A stretch of DNA of 64,000 nucleotides from Hyphomonadaceae bacterium. GTDB taxonomy: Bacteria > Pseudomonadota > Alphaproteobacteria > Caulobacterales > Aquidulcibacteraceae. The notes under the pieces are model-generated. The model made no database searches, was not told where the DNA came from, and worked only from the letters and a program-made list of their open reading frames with translations. The stretch covers positions 62,001 through 126,000 of the forward strand of contig JALHQO010000009.1 of assembly GCA_022841905.1 (NCBI GenBank), read 5' to 3'. The position numbers and the translations under genes are program-made. This document shows, one piece after another, positions 22,769-30,515 of this stretch (positions within the stretch are counted from its first letter, which is position 1; each line of letters begins with the position of its first letter).

Positions 22769-25138
22769 ATGGGACGGGGTAAGCACGCCGGCATTCGGAA
22801 CATTGTCTACCTAATGCTCGAAAACAGGTCGCTCGATAACGTGCTTGGCTGGCTGTACGAGCACGACAAGCCCGCTCAAGTGCTGCCGCCTGGCTCTTCG
22901 CCAGATTTTGACGGCCTAAACCCGGACCTCTTTCAACGAGACGCTAAAGGCAAGGAGCACCGTGTCATTCGCGGCACGGGCGGCCGCCACGCCGTCCCTC
23001 GCTACGACCCGCATGAAACATACGAACACGTCAACTATCAGCTCTTCGGCGCCGAGGGCACGCCGCCCGGCGACACCCCACCCAAAATGGACGGCTTCTA
23101 TCGCGACTACGCCAAGTGGTACCGAAACAACGACGAAATCATGATGAGCTACACACCGGAAGAGCTTCCGGTGTTGAACACCCTCGCCCGACGCTTCGCA
23201 GTTTCCGATCAGTACTTCTCGTCCGTTCCGACGCAGACCAACTGTAACCGCGCTTTCGCAGCCGCCGGTAATTCTCTCGGCCTCGACAAGAAGGGCGAAC
23301 TAAAGGGCTGGGTCAACAACCGCCATTCGAGTTGGCTGGCGCGCCCAGGCGGCGTTCAGTTCAGCGAGCGCACGATGTGGAATGTGCTCGACGAGCAAGG
23401 GCAAGGCTCACCGAGCGATTGGATGATCTTTCACAGCAAAGGCAATTGGCTGGAGAATGCGCTCGGCGCCGAAGGCTACCCCTACACGCGGCGCATCATG
23501 GAGAAACTGCAGGACCGCCGCTTCGACGGAAACTTTGCACCAGTCGCCGCACTGTTCGACATGATCGCGAACGGCACGCTGCCGCGATTCAGTTTCATCG
23601 AGCCATCATGGACGCTGCCCTTCGGCCCTGGCCTCGGTCCCAATGGCACGGACTATCACCCGCCAGGCGACATCCGTAAGGGCGAGCGCTTTCTCCAACA
23701 TTTGTACGACGCGCTTTCGGGCGATCCCGAAATCTGGAACTCGCTGCTCTTCATCATCAACTTCGATGAGCACGGCGGCACATATGATCACGTTGCACCG
23801 CCCAGTGGCGCCAAGCCACCGTGGCACGAAAACGCGGACACGCCGAAGCCCGCACTTTGCGAGCAGGACTTTGGCTTTGACCGCTTCGGCGTACGCGTGC
23901 CGCTCATTCTTGTCTCCCCGTTCGTGCGCGAAAGCACAGTCTTCCGCTCCGACACCGACACGCCGTTCGATCACACTTCTGTCCTCGCGACGGTGCTGCA
24001 CTTGATGGGGGTAGACGAGCGTCATTGGCGTCTCGGCGCCCGCGTGGCCAACGCGCCGCGCTTCGACAACGTGCTCAGCGAGCGAGCGCGGGACGACATC
24101 CCCTCTCTCACAGGTGGCGCGATGCAAAAGCAGAGCATGAGCGAGCGTCTCTATCGGGCGCTGGAAAGCGACTATCCGGACCACCGCGCCGACATGCGAC
24201 CGGTGCACGCGGTTGGCATCGGCGCTACGGGCTATTTTGTCCCCTCGAACGCGGCGCGCAACTTCACCCACGCCGAACAGTTTCAGGGCGGGCAAGTCCC
24301 GGTGACGCTGCGCTTCTCCAATGGCTCCGGATCGCCAGTGGAGCATGACAGCGCCCTCGATGTGCGCGGCATGGCGGTCAAGTTTCATCTCAAGGATGGC
24401 GGCGAATCCGACCTCATCGCAATCACGCTGCCGATCTTCTTTGCGCAGAACCCGGAAGAATTTCTCCAATTCGCCGCAGCAGGCGTGCCGGTCCCCGACA
24501 AACCGGAGAACTGGCTGCAGCGTTTTTGGGATATGCTGCAGCTACGCACGCCCGCGCGTCCGCCGGACCTGCCAGAGGACGGGACAGCCGGCGTCATTCG
24601 CTATGCCAACACGCACATGGCCGCGCGGCCGGGCACAGTGGCGGCGACCATGTTGGTCACGCCAGCCAGTTACGGGCGCGCCGCTTATCACGCGCTGCAC
24701 ACCTTCAAGCTCATCGCAGCAGATGGCGGGGTTACGTTCGGCCGTTTCGATTGGGAGCCGGTAGCCGGCGTCGAGCCCTTCCTCGAGAAGGGCGTGCACA
24801 ATCAATTCCTGCACCAGGAGCTTCGCGAACGCATCAAGCGTGGGCCGATCCGCTTCGTGTTGCGCATGAACATCGCCGGCCAAGGCGATGATCTCGGCGA
24901 CCCCACTAAGGTTTGGGACACGACACGCGTGCGTGTGGTGCTTGGCGAATTGTGGATCACGGGGCTTGCTGACGACAATGGCGCCGGGTGCGAGCGGCTC
25001 AGCTTCAATCCGACGCGATTGGCGCCCGGCATCGAATGTTCAGACGACCCGGTGCTCGCAGCGCGCCGCGGGGCCTACGAATATTCGTGCCGGCTCCGCG
25101 GCGGCAGCGGCTGTCCAGTGGGAGGTGACACGTGGTGA
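22769..25138 (+). CDS. Fusion of PlcC/AcpA-type phosphoesterase and catalase-family (SrpA-like) domain
   Basis: N-half: NIVYLMLENRSLDN, PTQTNCNRAF, NFDEHGGTYDHVAPP, FDHTSVLATVLHL. C-half: RPVHAVGIGATGYF, VTLRFSNGSGSP, DVRGMAVKFHLKDGGESDLIAITLPIFFAQNPEEF, CERLSFNPTRLAPGIECSDDPVLAARRGAYEYS. Confidence 0.88.
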   Translation: MGRGKHAGIRNIVYLMLENRSLDNVLGWLYEHDKPAQVLPPGSSPDFDGLNPDLFQRDAKGKEHRVIRGTGGRHAVPRYDPHETYEHVNYQLFGAEGTPPGDTPPKMDGFYRDYAKWYRNNDEIMMSYTPEELPVLNTLARRFAVSDQYFSSVPTQTNCNRAFAAAGNSLGLDKKGELKGWVNNRHSSWLARPGGVQFSERTMWNVLDEQGQGSPSDWMIFHSKGNWLENALGAEGYPYTRRIMEKLQDRRFDGNFAPVAALFDMIANGTLPRFSFIEPSWTLPFGPGLGPNGTDYHPPGDIRKGERFLQHLYDALSGDPEIWNSLLFIINFDEHGGTYDHVAPPSGAKPPWHENADTPKPALCEQDFGFDRFGVRVPLILVSPFVRESTVFRSDTDTPFDHTSVLATVLHLMGVDERHWRLGARVANAPRFDNVLSERARDDIPSLTGGAMQKQSMSERLYRALESDYPDHRADMRPVHAVGIGATGYFVPSNAARNFTHAEQFQGGQVPVTLRFSNGSGSPVEHDSALDVRGMAVKFHLKDGGESDLIAITLPIFFAQNPEEFLQFAAAGVPVPDKPENWLQRFWDMLQLRTPARPPDLPEDGTAGVIRYANTHMAARPGTVAATMLVTPASYGRAAYHALHTFKLIAADGGVTFGRFDWEPVAGVEPFLEKGVHNQFLHQELRERIKRGPIRFVLRMNIAGQGDDLGDPTKVWDTTRVRVVLGELWITGLADDNGAGCERLSFNPTRLAPGIECSDDPVLAARRGAYEYSCRLRGGSGCPVGGDTW

Positions 25139-25773
25139 AGTTCTTCTCGAACATCTGGATGATGCTGCGCCACCTCTTCGAGCGCATCTTGATTGCGTTC
25201 TGGCGCCGCGTCGCACCGGTGAAGACGCCGCAACCCGGCTATTCCACGGCGCTTGCGGACAATCTGCAAATGCACATGAACCTGGTGATGCCGCTGGCCG
25301 ACCAGACGCCGGTCGGGCGCGCTCGGGCGGCGGCGGCGATCGCCGCCAATATCGACGAACTCTTCACCGGCCTCAGCAATGTCGGCACCGTGCATTTCGC
25401 GCGCTTCGATCTGATCGGCGGCAACCTTTGCATGTACTCGGTGTTCGACGGCGATTTCCGCGCTTACATTCGCGACTTTATCTGCGCATTCGGATCGGTG
25501 TTCGATTCACTCCTCGGCCTCGTAGCAGATCCTCCGCCCTCGCCGTCGGCGCAAAATCCCGAGGCGTTCATCGATTGGATCCATCGCCACGATTCTTTCC
25601 AAATTCCACGTGATCTCACGTCGCTGTTTCCGGAAGAGAAAAACATCAACAATCTGTCGCGCGATCTGGTGTTGCTGCTCGACGAAAACCCGAACGTGCA
25701 GCTTGGCCGCTTTAGCGGCTACCCGGGCGTATCGGTGGCGCAAATCCGCCACAGCTCGGGGCTGGGGTGGTGA
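25132..25773 (+). CDS. Uncharacterised protein in peroxidase cluster (possibly DyP-like ferredoxin-fold domain)
   Basis: Starts GTG after GGAGG; GTVHFARFDLIGGNLCMYSVFDGDFRAYIRDF segment; overlaps both neighbours by a few nt. Confidence 0.75.
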   Translation: MVKFFSNIWMMLRHLFERILIAFWRRVAPVKTPQPGYSTALADNLQMHMNLVMPLADQTPVGRARAAAAIAANIDELFTGLSNVGTVHFARFDLIGGNLCMYSVFDGDFRAYIRDFICAFGSVFDSLLGLVADPPPSPSAQNPEAFIDWIHRHDSFQIPRDLTSLFPEEKNINNLSRDLVLLLDENPNVQLGRFSGYPGVSVAQIRHSSGLGW

Positions 25774-27191
25774 GCGTGACGAGCGGGCTCAACCTCGCGG
25801 ACCTGCAAGGCAACATCCTGCGTGGCTATCACAAGCCGTTCGTGCGCCATCTCGTGTTGAGTGTTGATGCGCCAGCCGCCGCTCGCCGCTGGCTGGCCGA
25901 CGCCACGAGCGGCGACGCGAGCAAAGCGCCGCAGATCACCAACGCCGAACCGTGGGATGAACGACCGCCTTTCTGCGTCAACATCGGCATTACGCACGCC
26001 GGGCTCGCGGCGCTCGGCGTCGCGCGCGCTTCGCTCAACAGCTTTCCGCATGAATTCGTCGCCGGCATGGCCGCGCGCAATGTGATGATCGGCGACACAG
26101 GCCCCAGCGATCCCTCTCAATGGCACGAGGCGTGGCGGCGCCCCGAAGACGTGCATCTGATGATCTCGGTCTATGCCGACGACGCCAACGACCGAACGAC
26201 GATCGCCGATCGTATCCTCAGCGCGCGCGGCGCCTTCCGTTTGCGCGCGGCACTTGATGGCGAGGCTTTCAAGGGCGACCTCGTGCATTTCGGCTATCGC
26301 GACAGCATCGCCCAACCGCAATTCTACGGCGTTCACGATCCCGACGACCGCCGTGACGACCAACCGTTCGTCCAAGTTGGCGCCATGTTGCTTGGGCATG
26401 CGACGCCGATCGAGAATCTGCGCTGGCAAGTGCCGGAGCCGCATGTGCTTGGTTTCAACGGCAGCTTCAACGCGTTCCGCGTGCTTGAACAACAGGTGGA
26501 GGAATTCGAGAGTTTTCTCACCGCGTGCGCCGACAAACTGATGAAAGATCCTCTCGGCGAACAGCTGTTGCCGCCCGGCGACGAGGCACAATGGGCGCCG
26601 CCCATGACGCGCCACGCGGCGCTGCGCGAGATGGTCGCCGCGAAGATGCTTGGCCGGTGGCGCAACGGCGTGCCGCTCGCTCTGTCGCCGACATCGCCGT
26701 CACCCACGCCGCCGATCGGCAATGCGGGTCTCAACAATTATGGCTACTCGACCGATCCGGATGGTCAGCGCTGCCCGATTGGCAGTCATATGCGGCGCAG
26801 CAACCCACGCGACGCCCGGACTGTGCAGCGCAACACCAATCATACCCGCCGCCTGGTTCGCCGCGGGATGCCCTACGGCCCGCACTACGATCCAGCTCAT
26901 CCAGTAAAAGCAGAGCGCGGGCTGCTCGGGTCATTCATGTGCGCAAGCCTCACAGGGCAGTTCGAAGCGATTCAGTACGACTGGACCAATCTCGGGCTGC
27001 AAGATCCCCGCATCACCGGCTCGAACGATCCAATCCTCGGCAACAATGATCCCCTGTTCAGCCGCTTCTCCTTTCCGGTGGGAGACAATGCCGTTACGTT
27101 CCGGGGCTTCTCTAGTTTCGTGCATACGAAGGGCGGCGCTTACTTCTTCCAACCAAGCATGAGCGCCATCCGTCACCTCGCTTCGCTCTAA
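25767..27191 (+). CDS. Dyp-type heme peroxidase
   Basis: LADLQGNILRGYHKPFVRHLVL, GYRDSIAQPQFYGV (GxxD-type motif), GSHMRRSNPRDARTV (proximal His region), LVRRGMPYGP. Confidence 0.9.
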   Translation: MVSVTSGLNLADLQGNILRGYHKPFVRHLVLSVDAPAAARRWLADATSGDASKAPQITNAEPWDERPPFCVNIGITHAGLAALGVARASLNSFPHEFVAGMAARNVMIGDTGPSDPSQWHEAWRRPEDVHLMISVYADDANDRTTIADRILSARGAFRLRAALDGEAFKGDLVHFGYRDSIAQPQFYGVHDPDDRRDDQPFVQVGAMLLGHATPIENLRWQVPEPHVLGFNGSFNAFRVLEQQVEEFESFLTACADKLMKDPLGEQLLPPGDEAQWAPPMTRHAALREMVAAKMLGRWRNGVPLALSPTSPSPTPPIGNAGLNNYGYSTDPDGQRCPIGSHMRRSNPRDARTVQRNTNHTRRLVRRGMPYGPHYDPAHPVKAERGLLGSFMCASLTGQFEAIQYDWTNLGLQDPRITGSNDPILGNNDPLFSRFSFPVGDNAVTFRGFSSFVHTKGGAYFFQPSMSAIRHLASL

Positions 27192-27224: not shown

Positions 27225-30200
27225 ATGCCGACCGAACAACTGACCATCCTGTTCACCGATCTTGTCGGCTCCACGGAATTGTCGCAGGCGCACGCGCCCG
27301 ACAAGGCCGATGAAATTCGCCGGCAGCACACCGCCCTTTTGCGCCAAGCCATCACTGAGCACGGCGGCACGGAGGTCAAGAATCTCGGTGACGGCGTGAT
27401 GGTTGCGTTTGGATCTGCTTCTGCTGCGCTGACATGCGCTGTCGCCATGCAGCAACGCGTCGATCTCGACAATCGCCGCGAACAGCGTCTGAACGGCCTG
27501 CGGGTTGGCATCAGCGCCGGTGAAGTCGTGCGCGAGCAGGACGACTATTTTGGCGACGCTGTGGTGGAAGCGGCGCGCCTTTGCGGACACTGCGAAGGCG
27601 GCCAGGTGTTGCTGGCCGAAGTGGTTCGTCTGCTTGCCGGACGCCGGAACGCACACGAATGCCGCTCGATGGGTTCGGTTACGCTAAAAGGTCTAAACAC
27701 ACCCGTTGATGTCATCGAAGTGGTCTGGCCGCGCCTTGAGCATGTCGGCGCAGCCTCACGCATCCCGCTTCCCGCCAGGATCGAACGACCGGCCGCAAAC
27801 TTTGTCGGCCGTTCTGAAGAACTCAGGTCGCTCGACGCTGCGTTCTCAAGAGTGTCCGCGGCTGGCGCACGAGAGATTGTCCTGGTTGGGGGCGAGGCGG
27901 GGCTAGGCAAAACGACGATGGCCGCTTACGCAGCCCGCGCCGCGTTCGACAAAGGCGCGAACGTCCTGTTCGGCCATTGCGAAGAAGACCTTGTAACACC
28001 CTACCAGCTCTTCGCCGAAACGTTGCGCCACTACGTCACGCATGCGCCAGAGGAAGACTTGCGCGCGCATGTGGCCGAACACGGCTCAGAACTCGCGCGT
28101 CTCGTCCCGGCACTGGCGGGCCGCATCCCAGACCTGCCGCCGACCAAGGCCACCGACGCCGATTCCGAGCGCTCACTGCTGTTCGCGGCTGTCGTCGGCA
28201 TGCTGGCCTCGGCGTCCGCCGAACGCCCGCTCGTGCTGGTGCTCGATGACGTGCAATGGGCCGACAAAGGCAGTCTGCTTTTGCTGCGCCACCTCAGCAT
28301 CGTGGACCGACCGATGCGCCTCCTCGTGGTGGCGACCTATCGCGACAACGAACTCAGCGCCCTTCTCGACACGCTCGCTGCTCTCCATCGCCAGACTGGC
28401 GTCACGCGCATCGATCTCAAGGGCCTCGACGACAGTGAGGTTCTGCAATGCGTGGCCTCTATCGTGGGGCGCGCCAAAGCTGAGGTTGCGCGCGGGCTCG
28501 CACGCGCCGTGCACAACGAAACCGACGGCAATCCGTTCTTCGTGACGGAGTTGTTGCGCCACCTGACCGAGACCGGCGCTGTTTCCCAGGATGGCCAGTG
28601 GACGTCCGGTGGCGGCATCGACAAGCTAAGCCTTCCCGACAGCCTCCGCGAAGTTATCGGCGCGCGCGTCGCCCGGCTTGGCAGCGATTGCGGCCGCGTG
28701 CTCGGCTTCGCTGCTGTCATAGGGCGGGATTTCGACTTCGACCTCCTCGCCCGTGCGACCGAAATGAAGGAGGACGCGCTTTTAGATACGCTGGACGGCG
28801 CAATAGATGCGGCGCTCATCCAGGAACTGTCCGAGGGCGTCGGCCGCTATCACTTTGCGCACGGCCTCATTCAGCACGCGCTCTATCAGGAGCTCAGCGC
28901 CACGCGCCGCGCCAAGGCGCATCGCACCATAGCAATTGCGCTCGATGAACTCTGCGGCGCGCGACTTGGTCCGCGTATCGGTGAGTTGGCGCGTCACTGG
29001 TGCCACGCCCCGCTCCGCGAAGACGCGCCCAAGGCCGTCGCCTATGCCTACCAGGCCGGCAATGCGGCGCTGAGCGCCCTCGCTCCCGCCGACGCGATCG
29101 ACTACTTCGCCACCGCCAAGAAGTTGATCGCCGAGTACGACGTCTCCGATGATGCGATGGAGCTTGACCTCGCCATTGGCCTCGGCGCGGCGCAGCGCCA
29201 GACCGGCGATCCGGCGTCCCGCGAGACCTTGCTCGCCGCCGGCGCCCGCGCCGCTGCGCTCAACGACACCGGACGGTTGGTCCGCGCTGCACTCGCCAAT
29301 GACCGCGGTTGGCACAGCACCACGGGCGCCGTAGACGCAGAGAAGATCGCGTTGCTGGAACTGGCGCTAGAGCGCTTGCCCGCCGGCGTGCCTGATCGTG
29401 CGCTCGTGCTGGGCACACTCTGCGCAGAACTTGCCTTCGGCAGCACGCTAGAACGCCGACGCGCCCTTGCGGACGAAGCTCTAGCCATAGCCGAAGCCAC
29501 CGGAGACGATGCGATCATGGTTCGCACGTTGAACCACATGGCCTTCTCGCTGACGCTGCCATCGTTGCTCGAGTCTTCGCTGAAGTGGACAGCCGAAGCG
29601 CTCACGCGGGCCGAACGTTTGGGCGATCCAATGCAGCTCTATTTCGCCGCCATGTACCGTGCGACCGCGGCCGTACGCGCGATCGACATCGCTGAGGCGG
29701 ATCGCTGCTACGCCATTGCAGGCGATCTCGTGCGTCGACTCGATCTTCCGCCGCTGCGCTGGGAGTTTGGCTTCCACATGTCAAAACGCGCGCAGCTGGC
29801 CGGAGACTTGGCCGAAGCCGAACGGCTCGCCGGTGAGGCGGCTTCAATTGGCGCCGACTGCGGCCAGCCTGATGCACAGACCTTCTTCGGCGTGCAGCTT
29901 GCCGCCATAAGTTGGATGCGCGGCGCCATGGGCGACTTGGCGCCTTTGCTTGAGATGATGATGCACGCCAATCCGGGCCTGCCCACCATCCGCGCCTCGC
30001 TCGCGATGGCCTTGGCGCAAGCCGAGCGGCTCGACGATGCGTCGCGCATTCTCGGCGAGTTTGCCGCCACCGGCTATGCGCTTCCCGAGGACGCAGCGTG
30101 GCTGAACGGCATGACCGAGTACGCCGATGCTGCTGTCAATTGCAACGACCGGGTCGCCGCCCAGGCGCTCTATGATCTCTTATCGCCATGGGAAACGCAT

Positions 30201-30515
30201 TTCTCCGCCGCTGGCGGACTAACCGCGGAAGGTCCAGTGTCTATGCACCTTGGCGGACTTGCAACGGTGCTCGAGCGTTACGATGACGCTGAACGCCACC
30301 TCACCCACGCCGCCGACCTTTGCACGCGGCACAAAATCAAATTCTTCGGCGCTCTAACGGACTTGCGCCTCGCTCAACTCATGCTTCGGCGCGGCGAGGA
30401 CAGCCACATTGAAGCCGCGCGGCACTTGTTGGCGCGTGCCAAGGCAACGGCGGCGACGCATGGCTACGGCGCCGTTGAACGCCAAGCTACCGCGACTCTG
30501 GCGCAATTGACCTGA
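27225..30515 (+). CDS. Class III adenylate/guanylate cyclase-AAA ATPase-TPR multidomain regulator
   Basis: ILFTDLVGSTELSQ, VKNLGDGVMVAFGSASAA, AARLCGHCEGGQVLLAEVVR; P-loop VLVGGEAGLGKTTMAAYAAR; long helical C-terminal repeats. Confidence 0.92.
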   Translation: MPTEQLTILFTDLVGSTELSQAHAPDKADEIRRQHTALLRQAITEHGGTEVKNLGDGVMVAFGSASAALTCAVAMQQRVDLDNRREQRLNGLRVGISAGEVVREQDDYFGDAVVEAARLCGHCEGGQVLLAEVVRLLAGRRNAHECRSMGSVTLKGLNTPVDVIEVVWPRLEHVGAASRIPLPARIERPAANFVGRSEELRSLDAAFSRVSAAGAREIVLVGGEAGLGKTTMAAYAARAAFDKGANVLFGHCEEDLVTPYQLFAETLRHYVTHAPEEDLRAHVAEHGSELARLVPALAGRIPDLPPTKATDADSERSLLFAAVVGMLASASAERPLVLVLDDVQWADKGSLLLLRHLSIVDRPMRLLVVATYRDNELSALLDTLAALHRQTGVTRIDLKGLDDSEVLQCVASIVGRAKAEVARGLARAVHNETDGNPFFVTELLRHLTETGAVSQDGQWTSGGGIDKLSLPDSLREVIGARVARLGSDCGRVLGFAAVIGRDFDFDLLARATEMKEDALLDTLDGAIDAALIQELSEGVGRYHFAHGLIQHALYQELSATRRAKAHRTIAIALDELCGARLGPRIGELARHWCHAPLREDAPKAVAYAYQAGNAALSALAPADAIDYFATAKKLIAEYDVSDDAMELDLAIGLGAAQRQTGDPASRETLLAAGARAAALNDTGRLVRAALANDRGWHSTTGAVDAEKIALLELALERLPAGVPDRALVLGTLCAELAFGSTLERRRALADEALAIAEATGDDAIMVRTLNHMAFSLTLPSLLESSLKWTAEALTRAERLGDPMQLYFAAMYRATAAVRAIDIAEADRCYAIAGDLVRRLDLPPLRWEFGFHMSKRAQLAGDLAEAERLAGEAASIGADCGQPDAQTFFGVQLAAISWMRGAMGDLAPLLEMMMHANPGLPTIRASLAMALAQAERLDDASRILGEFAATGYALPEDAAWLNGMTEYADAAVNCNDRVAAQALYDLLSPWETHFSAAGGLTAEGPVSMHLGGLATVLERYDDAERHLTHAADLCTRHKIKFFGALTDLRLAQLMLRRGEDSHIEAARHLLARAKATAATHGYGAVERQATATLAQLT

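What the first reader, a model, noticed from the sequence alone, without database searches (positions are those of the whole stretch)
22769..25138. Phosphoesterase-catalase domain fusion in one polypeptide
One 789-aa ORF joins a PLC/AcpA-type phosphoesterase, retaining ENRS-DN, QTN-NR and FDEHGGTYDHV motifs, to an SrpA/catalase-family heme domain that retains the catalytic-His region (VHAVGIGATGYF), RFSNG and DVRGMAVKF motifs. Both halves look catalytically competent. This could couple phospholipid headgroup cleavage to lipid (hydro)peroxide chemistry, i.e. a membrane-lipid repair or oxylipin-type enzyme.
Basis: partly seen in the sequence, partly recalled or inferred. Interest (0 to 1): 0.78.

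Follow-up and report, generated by a model that had tools for sequence, protein, structure and literature searches.

The report
Phospholipase-catalase fusion enzyme in lipid-peroxide cassette
A soil and freshwater bacterial lineage has welded a membrane-lipid-cutting enzyme to a small catalase-like heme enzyme, and the fusion sits in a widespread, apparently undescribed gene cassette (a small protein, a DyP peroxidase, and a catalase or P450, often with lipases) that probably oxidises fatty acids or handles their peroxides.

Summary
ORF 22769-25138 encodes 789 aa: a PF04185 phospholipase-C-type domain (residues 9-415) plus a short catalase-family domain (about 455-789). The fusion is real: full length in five other species of the genus (82-97% identity), both halves under purifying selection (dN/dS 0.05-0.12). 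It was not found outside the genus among 399 phylum and 299 order genomes. 'Both halves competent' needs qualifying. The PLC half keeps 7 of 8 catalytic residues of plant NPC4 (His79 is Glu83). The heme half keeps distal His480 and proximal Arg766/Tyr770 but lacks the catalase distal Asn, so it resembles organic-peroxide minicatalases, not true catalase.

The surroundings matter more. The fusion overlaps a 213-aa protein ('SML', no Pfam, NCBIfam or PHROG match), which overlaps a D-type DyP peroxidase; a cyclase/AAA protein follows. An SML profile found DyP beside or fused to SML in all 26 Pseudomonadota genomes hit; sixteen also carry a P450, seven a catalase-family protein. Lipid genes recur: patatin, LCAT, GDSL lipase, PLC, FadL, thioesterase, oleate hydratase. 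Best reading: a lipid-hydroperoxide (oxylipin-like) cassette in which one lineage fused a lipid hydrolase to the catalase partner. The chemistry is untested; detoxification remains a live rival.

The parts
22769..25138 (+). PLC-minicatalase fusion protein, 789 aa, no recognisable signal peptide
   Evidence: conserved in 6 genomes of one genus
22793..24013 (+). PF04185 phosphoesterase domain (residues 9-415): E18, N19, D80, E83, T157, H297, D333, E334 aligned to NPC4 E23, N24, D76, H79, T158, H264, D299, E300
   Evidence: NPC4 residues from PMC9837106
24131..25135 (+). minimal catalase-like heme domain (residues 455-789): distal H480, proximal R766 and Y770 kept; distal Asn replaced by I552/T553
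25132..25773 (+). SML: 213-aa small protein, amphipathic N-terminal helix, family without a database name; overlaps the fusion by 7 bp
25767..27191 (+). D-type DyP peroxidase, 474 aa (heme-pocket D179, H341, R366 kept); overlaps SML by 7 bp
27225..30515 (+). adenylate/guanylate cyclase + AAA_16 protein, 1096 aa, probable regulator; 33 bp after DyP and conserved there in sister species

Best explanation
The 789-aa protein is a bifunctional enzyme in a four-gene unit: PLC-catalase, SML, DyP, cyclase-AAA. The NPC/PLC-like half probably cleaves membrane phospholipids at the cytoplasmic face, releasing (oxidised) diacylglycerol through a phospho-Thr157 intermediate. The fused heme half is a minicatalase-type organic-hydroperoxide enzyme (peroxidase, isomerase or lyase), not a hydrogen-peroxide catalase, and processes lipid hydroperoxides together with the DyP peroxidase. 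SML, with its amphipathic N-terminal helix, is probably the membrane or partner adaptor for DyP. In other bacteria the heme partner is a separate catalase-family protein or a P450, and the lipid hydrolase is a patatin, LCAT-like, GDSL or alpha/beta hydrolase; this lineage fused the two. Shown: the fusion, its conservation, catalytic-residue retention, and the cassette association. Inferred: substrates, reaction, membrane location, order of steps.
For: Domains and solved relatives. 7 of 8 NPC4 catalytic residues. Heme ligand and distal His kept. Fusion conserved, dN/dS <= 0.12. Start/stop overlaps of fusion, SML and DyP. SML profile: DyP adjacent or fused in 26/26 SML genomes, P450 in 16, catalase family in 7. 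P450s within 6 kb: 13 loci by Pfam alone against 0.24 expected, and the only P450 of five genomes lies there. Lipid genes in the same clusters: LCAT, patatin, GDSL lipase fused to SML-DyP-P450 (51), FadL, PLC, oleate hydratase, 3-hydroxyacyl-CoA dehydrogenase and thioesterase. An unfused catalase-SML-DyP set exists in another family of the same order. Precedents: Nostoc 10S-dioxygenase with a catalase-related hydroperoxide lyase, coral catalase-AOS/HPL-LOX fusions.
Against: No biochemical data for any member of the cassette. PLC yields diacylglycerol, not free fatty acid, whereas the lipases of other clusters would release fatty acid; so the analogy is incomplete. The general-acid His79 of NPC4 is Glu83 here. 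A lipid hydrolase was seen in only a minority of SML-DyP clusters, and not every flank was annotated. Both AlphaFold models were too poor to use. DyP peroxidases are not known fatty-acid dioxygenases.
Confidence: 0.55

Rival explanations
1. Plain oxidative-stress defence: minicatalase and DyP reduce H2O2 and organic peroxides generally, and the PLC half removes damaged phospholipids or is only a localisation aid. No specific lipid mediator is made.
For: The closest solved heme relative (3e4w/3e4y) is, from memory of its publication, an organic-peroxide peroxidase with a proposed protective role; distal Asn lost; DyPs are peroxidases.
Against: P450s with heme-Cys motifs replace the catalase at most loci; lipases, FadL and oleate hydratase recur; the own genome already has a large KatE-like catalase.
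Confidence: 0.25
2. The PF04185 half acts on another phosphodiester or phosphomonoester (acid-phosphatase-like), and the fusion merely fixes co-expression.
For: PF04185 also holds phosphatases (sub-cutoff acid_phos_Burk hit); related domains are joined to unrelated modules; His79 of NPC4 is Glu83.
Against: Best solved hits are phospholipases C; lipid hydrolases of other folds sit in sister clusters; a PF04185 protein also lies near an SML-DyP pair in G422.
Confidence: 0.15
3. A signalling or defence unit: the PLC makes diacylglycerol and the cyclase-AAA protein makes a nucleotide messenger, with the heme enzymes as effectors or sensors.
For: Cyclase-AAA or TPR proteins adjoin many SML-DyP loci; weak PADLOC PycC hits to the cyclase domain.
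Against: The PycC hits probably reflect the shared cyclase fold; no PADLOC hit for the other three genes; cyclase-AAA-TPR proteins are common regulators.
Confidence: 0.04
4. Assembly or frameshift artefact joining two genes.
For: Fusion found only in one genus.
Against: Six independent assemblies, one open frame, low dN/dS across both halves.
Confidence: 0.01

Closest known systems
Minimal catalase MAP-2744c type (PDB 3e4w/3e4y) within PF00199
   Same: Catalase core of ~320 aa without the long C-terminal parts; distal His and proximal Arg/Tyr kept; RFSNGSG and RGMAVKF motifs
   Different: Fused behind a PLC domain; part of an SML-DyP operon; activity untested. The protein name MAP-2744c for 3e4w is from memory.
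Non-specific phospholipase C (Arabidopsis NPC4, PDB 8hav)
   Same: PF04185 fold, Thr nucleophile, 7 of 8 catalytic residues
   Different: Glu83 for His79; lacks the NPC4 C-terminal domain, a heme domain follows instead; bacterial and probably cytoplasmic
Nostoc 10S-dioxygenase with catalase-related hydroperoxide lyase; coral catalase-related AOS/HPL-lipoxygenase fusions
   Same: Small catalase relative paired or fused with an oxidising enzyme on fatty acids; P450s play the same part in plants and fungi
   Different: Here the partner is a DyP, not a COX-like dioxygenase or LOX, and the fusion partner is a lipid hydrolase
D-type DyP peroxidases (PDB 8re3, 2d3q)
   Same: Window 25767-27191 matches over its length and keeps heme-pocket residues
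   Different: This subfamily travels with SML and with a P450 or catalase

Membership tests
PF04185 phosphoesterase / NPC-type phospholipase C | Profile match above gathering score | tested here: met
   189.6 bits against 23
PF04185 phosphoesterase / NPC-type phospholipase C | NPC4 catalytic residues E23, N24, D76, H79, T158, H264, D299, E300 | tested here: inconclusive
   7 of 8 identical; H79 is E83
PF04185 phosphoesterase / NPC-type phospholipase C | Hydrolyses phospholipid to diacylglycerol | not testable with these tools
   needs an assay
TIGR03396 phosphocholine-specific PLC | Score above 580.25 bits | tested here: not met
   111 bits
PF00199 catalase superfamily | Profile match above gathering score | tested here: met
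   125.9 bits against 25
PF00199 catalase superfamily | Proximal Tyr ligand with Arg four residues before, and distal His | tested here: met
   Y770, R766, H480
True (H2O2) catalase | Distal Asn (human Asn148) | tested here: not met
   aligned residues I552/T553
Minicatalase, MAP-2744c type | ~30-35 kDa catalase core, best match to 3e4w | tested here: met
   best solved hit, E 4.7e-43, ~335-aa domain
Minicatalase, MAP-2744c type | Organic-hydroperoxide-dependent peroxidase activity | not testable with these tools
   needs an assay
Catalase-related AOS/HPL | Converts fatty-acid hydroperoxides | not testable with these tools
   distal Asn of coral AOS (Asn137, cited) is absent here; chemistry unknown
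DyP-type peroxidase (window 25767-27191) | Distal Asp and Arg, proximal His | tested here: met
   D179, R366, H341 invariant in A4; GYRDS in place of GxxDG
DyP-type peroxidase (window 25767-27191) | TIGR01413 score above 100.5 bits | tested here: not met
   84.5 bits; yet DyP_N PF21105 is above its cut-off and solved DyPs match to 2.5e-52

The most novel reading that the evidence does not exclude
SML-DyP is the core of an undescribed bacterial fatty-acid oxygenation pathway in which a DyP peroxidase, with SML as membrane or substrate adaptor, makes or uses lipid hydroperoxides that a P450 or a catalase relative converts to oxylipins. The PLC-catalase fusion is one solution for feeding membrane lipid directly into it.
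Probability: 0.3. Interest if true: 0.88.

Novelty: new variant of a known kind. Interest (0 to 1): 0.7.

Why it matters
The biological role of most DyP peroxidases is unsettled, and bacterial oxylipin pathways are known from few examples. A recurrent cassette that ties a DyP subfamily to interchangeable P450 or catalase partners and to lipid hydrolases gives a concrete, testable substrate class. The window's fusion is strong domain-fusion evidence that lipid hydrolysis and heme peroxide chemistry belong to one process. It also gives a function to look for in SML, a protein family that has no name.

Tried and rejected
AlphaFold of the fusion (pLDDT 26.6) and of SML (47) failed for lack of alignment depth; no fold search was made from them. 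The genome-contig scan used PLC-half peptides only and found just the known genus members. Plasmid tblastn with SML found nothing, because the family is too divergent for single-sequence search; a profile worked. TIGR03396 and HPII equivalog assignments rejected (far below cut-off). Assembly artefact rejected. A defence-system reading got no support beyond weak cyclase hits. Literature searches found no paper on a PLC-catalase fusion or on an SML-DyP-P450/catalase cassette, but the library holds only open-licence papers. The first greedy ORF maps hid some genes and were replaced.

Full report
Observation. The frame 22769-25138 (+) is a single 789-aa ORF with no internal stop. Pfam finds PF04185 at residues 9-415 (E 1.2e-55) and PF00199 in two stretches from residue 469 (E 2.7e-36). 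Solved relatives of the first half are all phospholipases C, with Arabidopsis NPC4 (8hav) best; the best relative of the second half is 3e4w/3e4y, a minimal catalase of about 320 residues. The window lies in G000:C9:62001-126000, a 3.56-Mb genome. Records of the same genus are titled Hyphomonadaceae, Caulobacteraceae or Alphaproteobacteria MAGs.

Is the fusion real? Yes. Five other genomes of the genus encode it in one frame (96-97% in two, 82-83% in three), followed by the same small gene, DyP and cyclase wherever the contig reaches. NG86 dN/dS against the own sequence is 0.069-0.116 for the PLC half and 0.054-0.096 for the catalase half, so both are selected as proteins. No second lineage with this fusion was seen in 399 phylum genomes (BLAST) or 299 order genomes (profile), nor in plasmids. 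It is thus a genus-restricted fusion, in 6 of 30 genomes sampled there. In another family of the same order, G753 has a free-standing close minicatalase at a contig end; a second contig begins within the same catalase sequence and continues with SML and DyP. That is probably the unfused state.

Active sites. NPC4's functional residues are E23, N24, D76, H79, T158, H264, D299 and E300, with T158 the nucleophile (PMC9837106). By the alignment they correspond to E18, N19, D80, E83, T157, H297, D333 and E334; all eight columns are invariant in the fusion family, and only H79 differs (Glu). In the catalase half, an alignment with two full-length catalases of the same genus puts H480 at the distal His, R766 and Y770 at the proximal Arg/Tyr, and I552/T553 at the position of the distal Asn. 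So the heme can be expected to bind, but the enzyme is not a canonical catalase. Minicatalases in the Rhizobium and Terrarubrum clusters also lack the Asn. My recollection, not checked here, is that the 3e4w protein was described as having little catalase and strong organic-peroxide peroxidase activity. The N-terminus runs straight into the first strand motif (residues 9-19), leaving no room for a signal peptide, so the protein is probably cytoplasmic (direct reading).

Operon. The fusion ends at 25138 and the next gene starts at 25132; that gene ends at 25773 and DyP starts at 25767; DyP ends at 27191 and the cyclase-AAA gene starts at 27225. The 7-bp overlaps suggest translational coupling. 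The 213-aa product (called SML here) has no Pfam, NCBIfam or PHROG match. It begins with a helix rich in aromatic and basic residues (hydrophobic moment up to 0.61; the only part of its model with pLDDT near 78), consistent with membrane association. DyP keeps D179, H341 and R366 and matches solved D-type DyPs.

The cassette elsewhere. Annotated plasmids first showed minicatalase, small hypothetical protein and DyP side by side in Rhizobium and Terrarubrum, and the hypothetical proteins are homologous to SML. A profile of 16 members (A5) hit 26 other Pseudomonadota genomes of 399. Gene maps of all of them show: DyP adjacent to or fused with SML, or one gene away (G422), in 26/26; a P450 in the same cluster in 16, including single ORFs P450-SML-SML-DyP of 1408-1535 aa and an SML-DyP-P450-GDSL-lipase ORF of 1587 aa (L112); a catalase-family protein in seven, one fused as DyP-catalase (L107, 900 aa); neither in three (G157, G111, G422). 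Some P450 and catalase calls rest on profiles built from cluster members, with heme-Cys or His/Tyr motifs checked. Counting only Pfam hits, 13 loci have a P450 within 6 kb against 0.24 expected from genome-wide counts (Poisson P about 1e-18). The 26 genomes are not independent (19 genera), so that P value overstates the case; but in five genomes the only P450 present lies in this cluster.

Lipid context. In the same clusters: LCAT-like hydrolase (L049); patatin (L051, L057, L089, L090); FadL-family outer-membrane transporter beside patatin and P450 (L089; L090 has the equivalent ORF); DUF676/alpha-beta hydrolase (L102) and alpha-beta hydrolase (L034); PF04185 PLC in G422 (L110). Among 14 plasmid DyP loci all have SML and 11 a catalase-family gene. 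Three share a block with a TetR regulator, acyl-CoA thioesterase, 3-hydroxyacyl-CoA dehydrogenase and oleate hydratase; these look like recent copies of one element. Another has thioesterase and patatin, another P450 with ferredoxin and flavoprotein. I did not compute enrichment for lipid genes as was done for P450.

Interpretation. A heme oxidising enzyme paired with either a P450 or a catalase relative is the known layout of fatty-acid hydroperoxide metabolism: Nostoc 10S-dioxygenase with a catalase-related lyase, fungal dioxygenase-P450 fusions, coral catalase-AOS/HPL-LOX fusions, plant CYP74. Finding both partner types interchangeably beside one DyP subfamily, together with lipid hydrolases, makes lipid (hydro)peroxides the likeliest substrate class. 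The window's protein adds a PLC to the catalase partner. Against over-reading: PLC gives diacylglycerol and not fatty acid; no chemistry has been measured; peroxide detoxification explains part of the pattern.

Verdict. The fusion is a new architecture of known domains; the SML-DyP-P450/catalase cassette is the more general and more interesting find.

Noticed in passing
window 25132-25773; alignment A5: Small protein family (consensus TIHFARW...LLFxSNFDGxxxxYLxDF) without a Pfam, NCBIfam or PHROG match, found with D-type DyP in all 26 genomes and 14 plasmids examined.
   Followed up: yes
L092, L093, L095, L099, L100, L109: Single ORFs of 1408-1535 aa joining P450, SML, SML and DyP: a two-heme fusion.
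   Followed up: partly
L112:392-5155: 1587-aa ORF SML-DyP-P450-GDSL lipase: another physical link of a lipid hydrolase to this heme module.
   Followed up: partly
L107:10188-12890: 900-aa DyP-catalase-family fusion with a second catalase-family gene nearby; L107, L102 and L103 carry Asn at the distal His position, so their chemistry may differ.
   Followed up: partly
L128, L134, L135 (plasmids): Catalase-SML-DyP beside TetR, acyl-CoA thioesterase, 3-hydroxyacyl-CoA dehydrogenase and oleate hydratase in Shinella, Novosphingobium and Roseomonas mucosa: apparently a mobile block.
   Followed up: partly
L088:6385-7779: RoxA-like cytochrome c protein close to an SML-DyP pair.
   Followed up: no
L110:10710-11717: 335-aa protein without a Pfam match between SML and DyP in G422, the cluster that also has a PLC.
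   Followed up: no
window 27225-30515 and CYC genes: Adenylate-cyclase-AAA/TPR proteins adjoin many SML-DyP loci, perhaps regulators sensing the product.
   Followed up: partly
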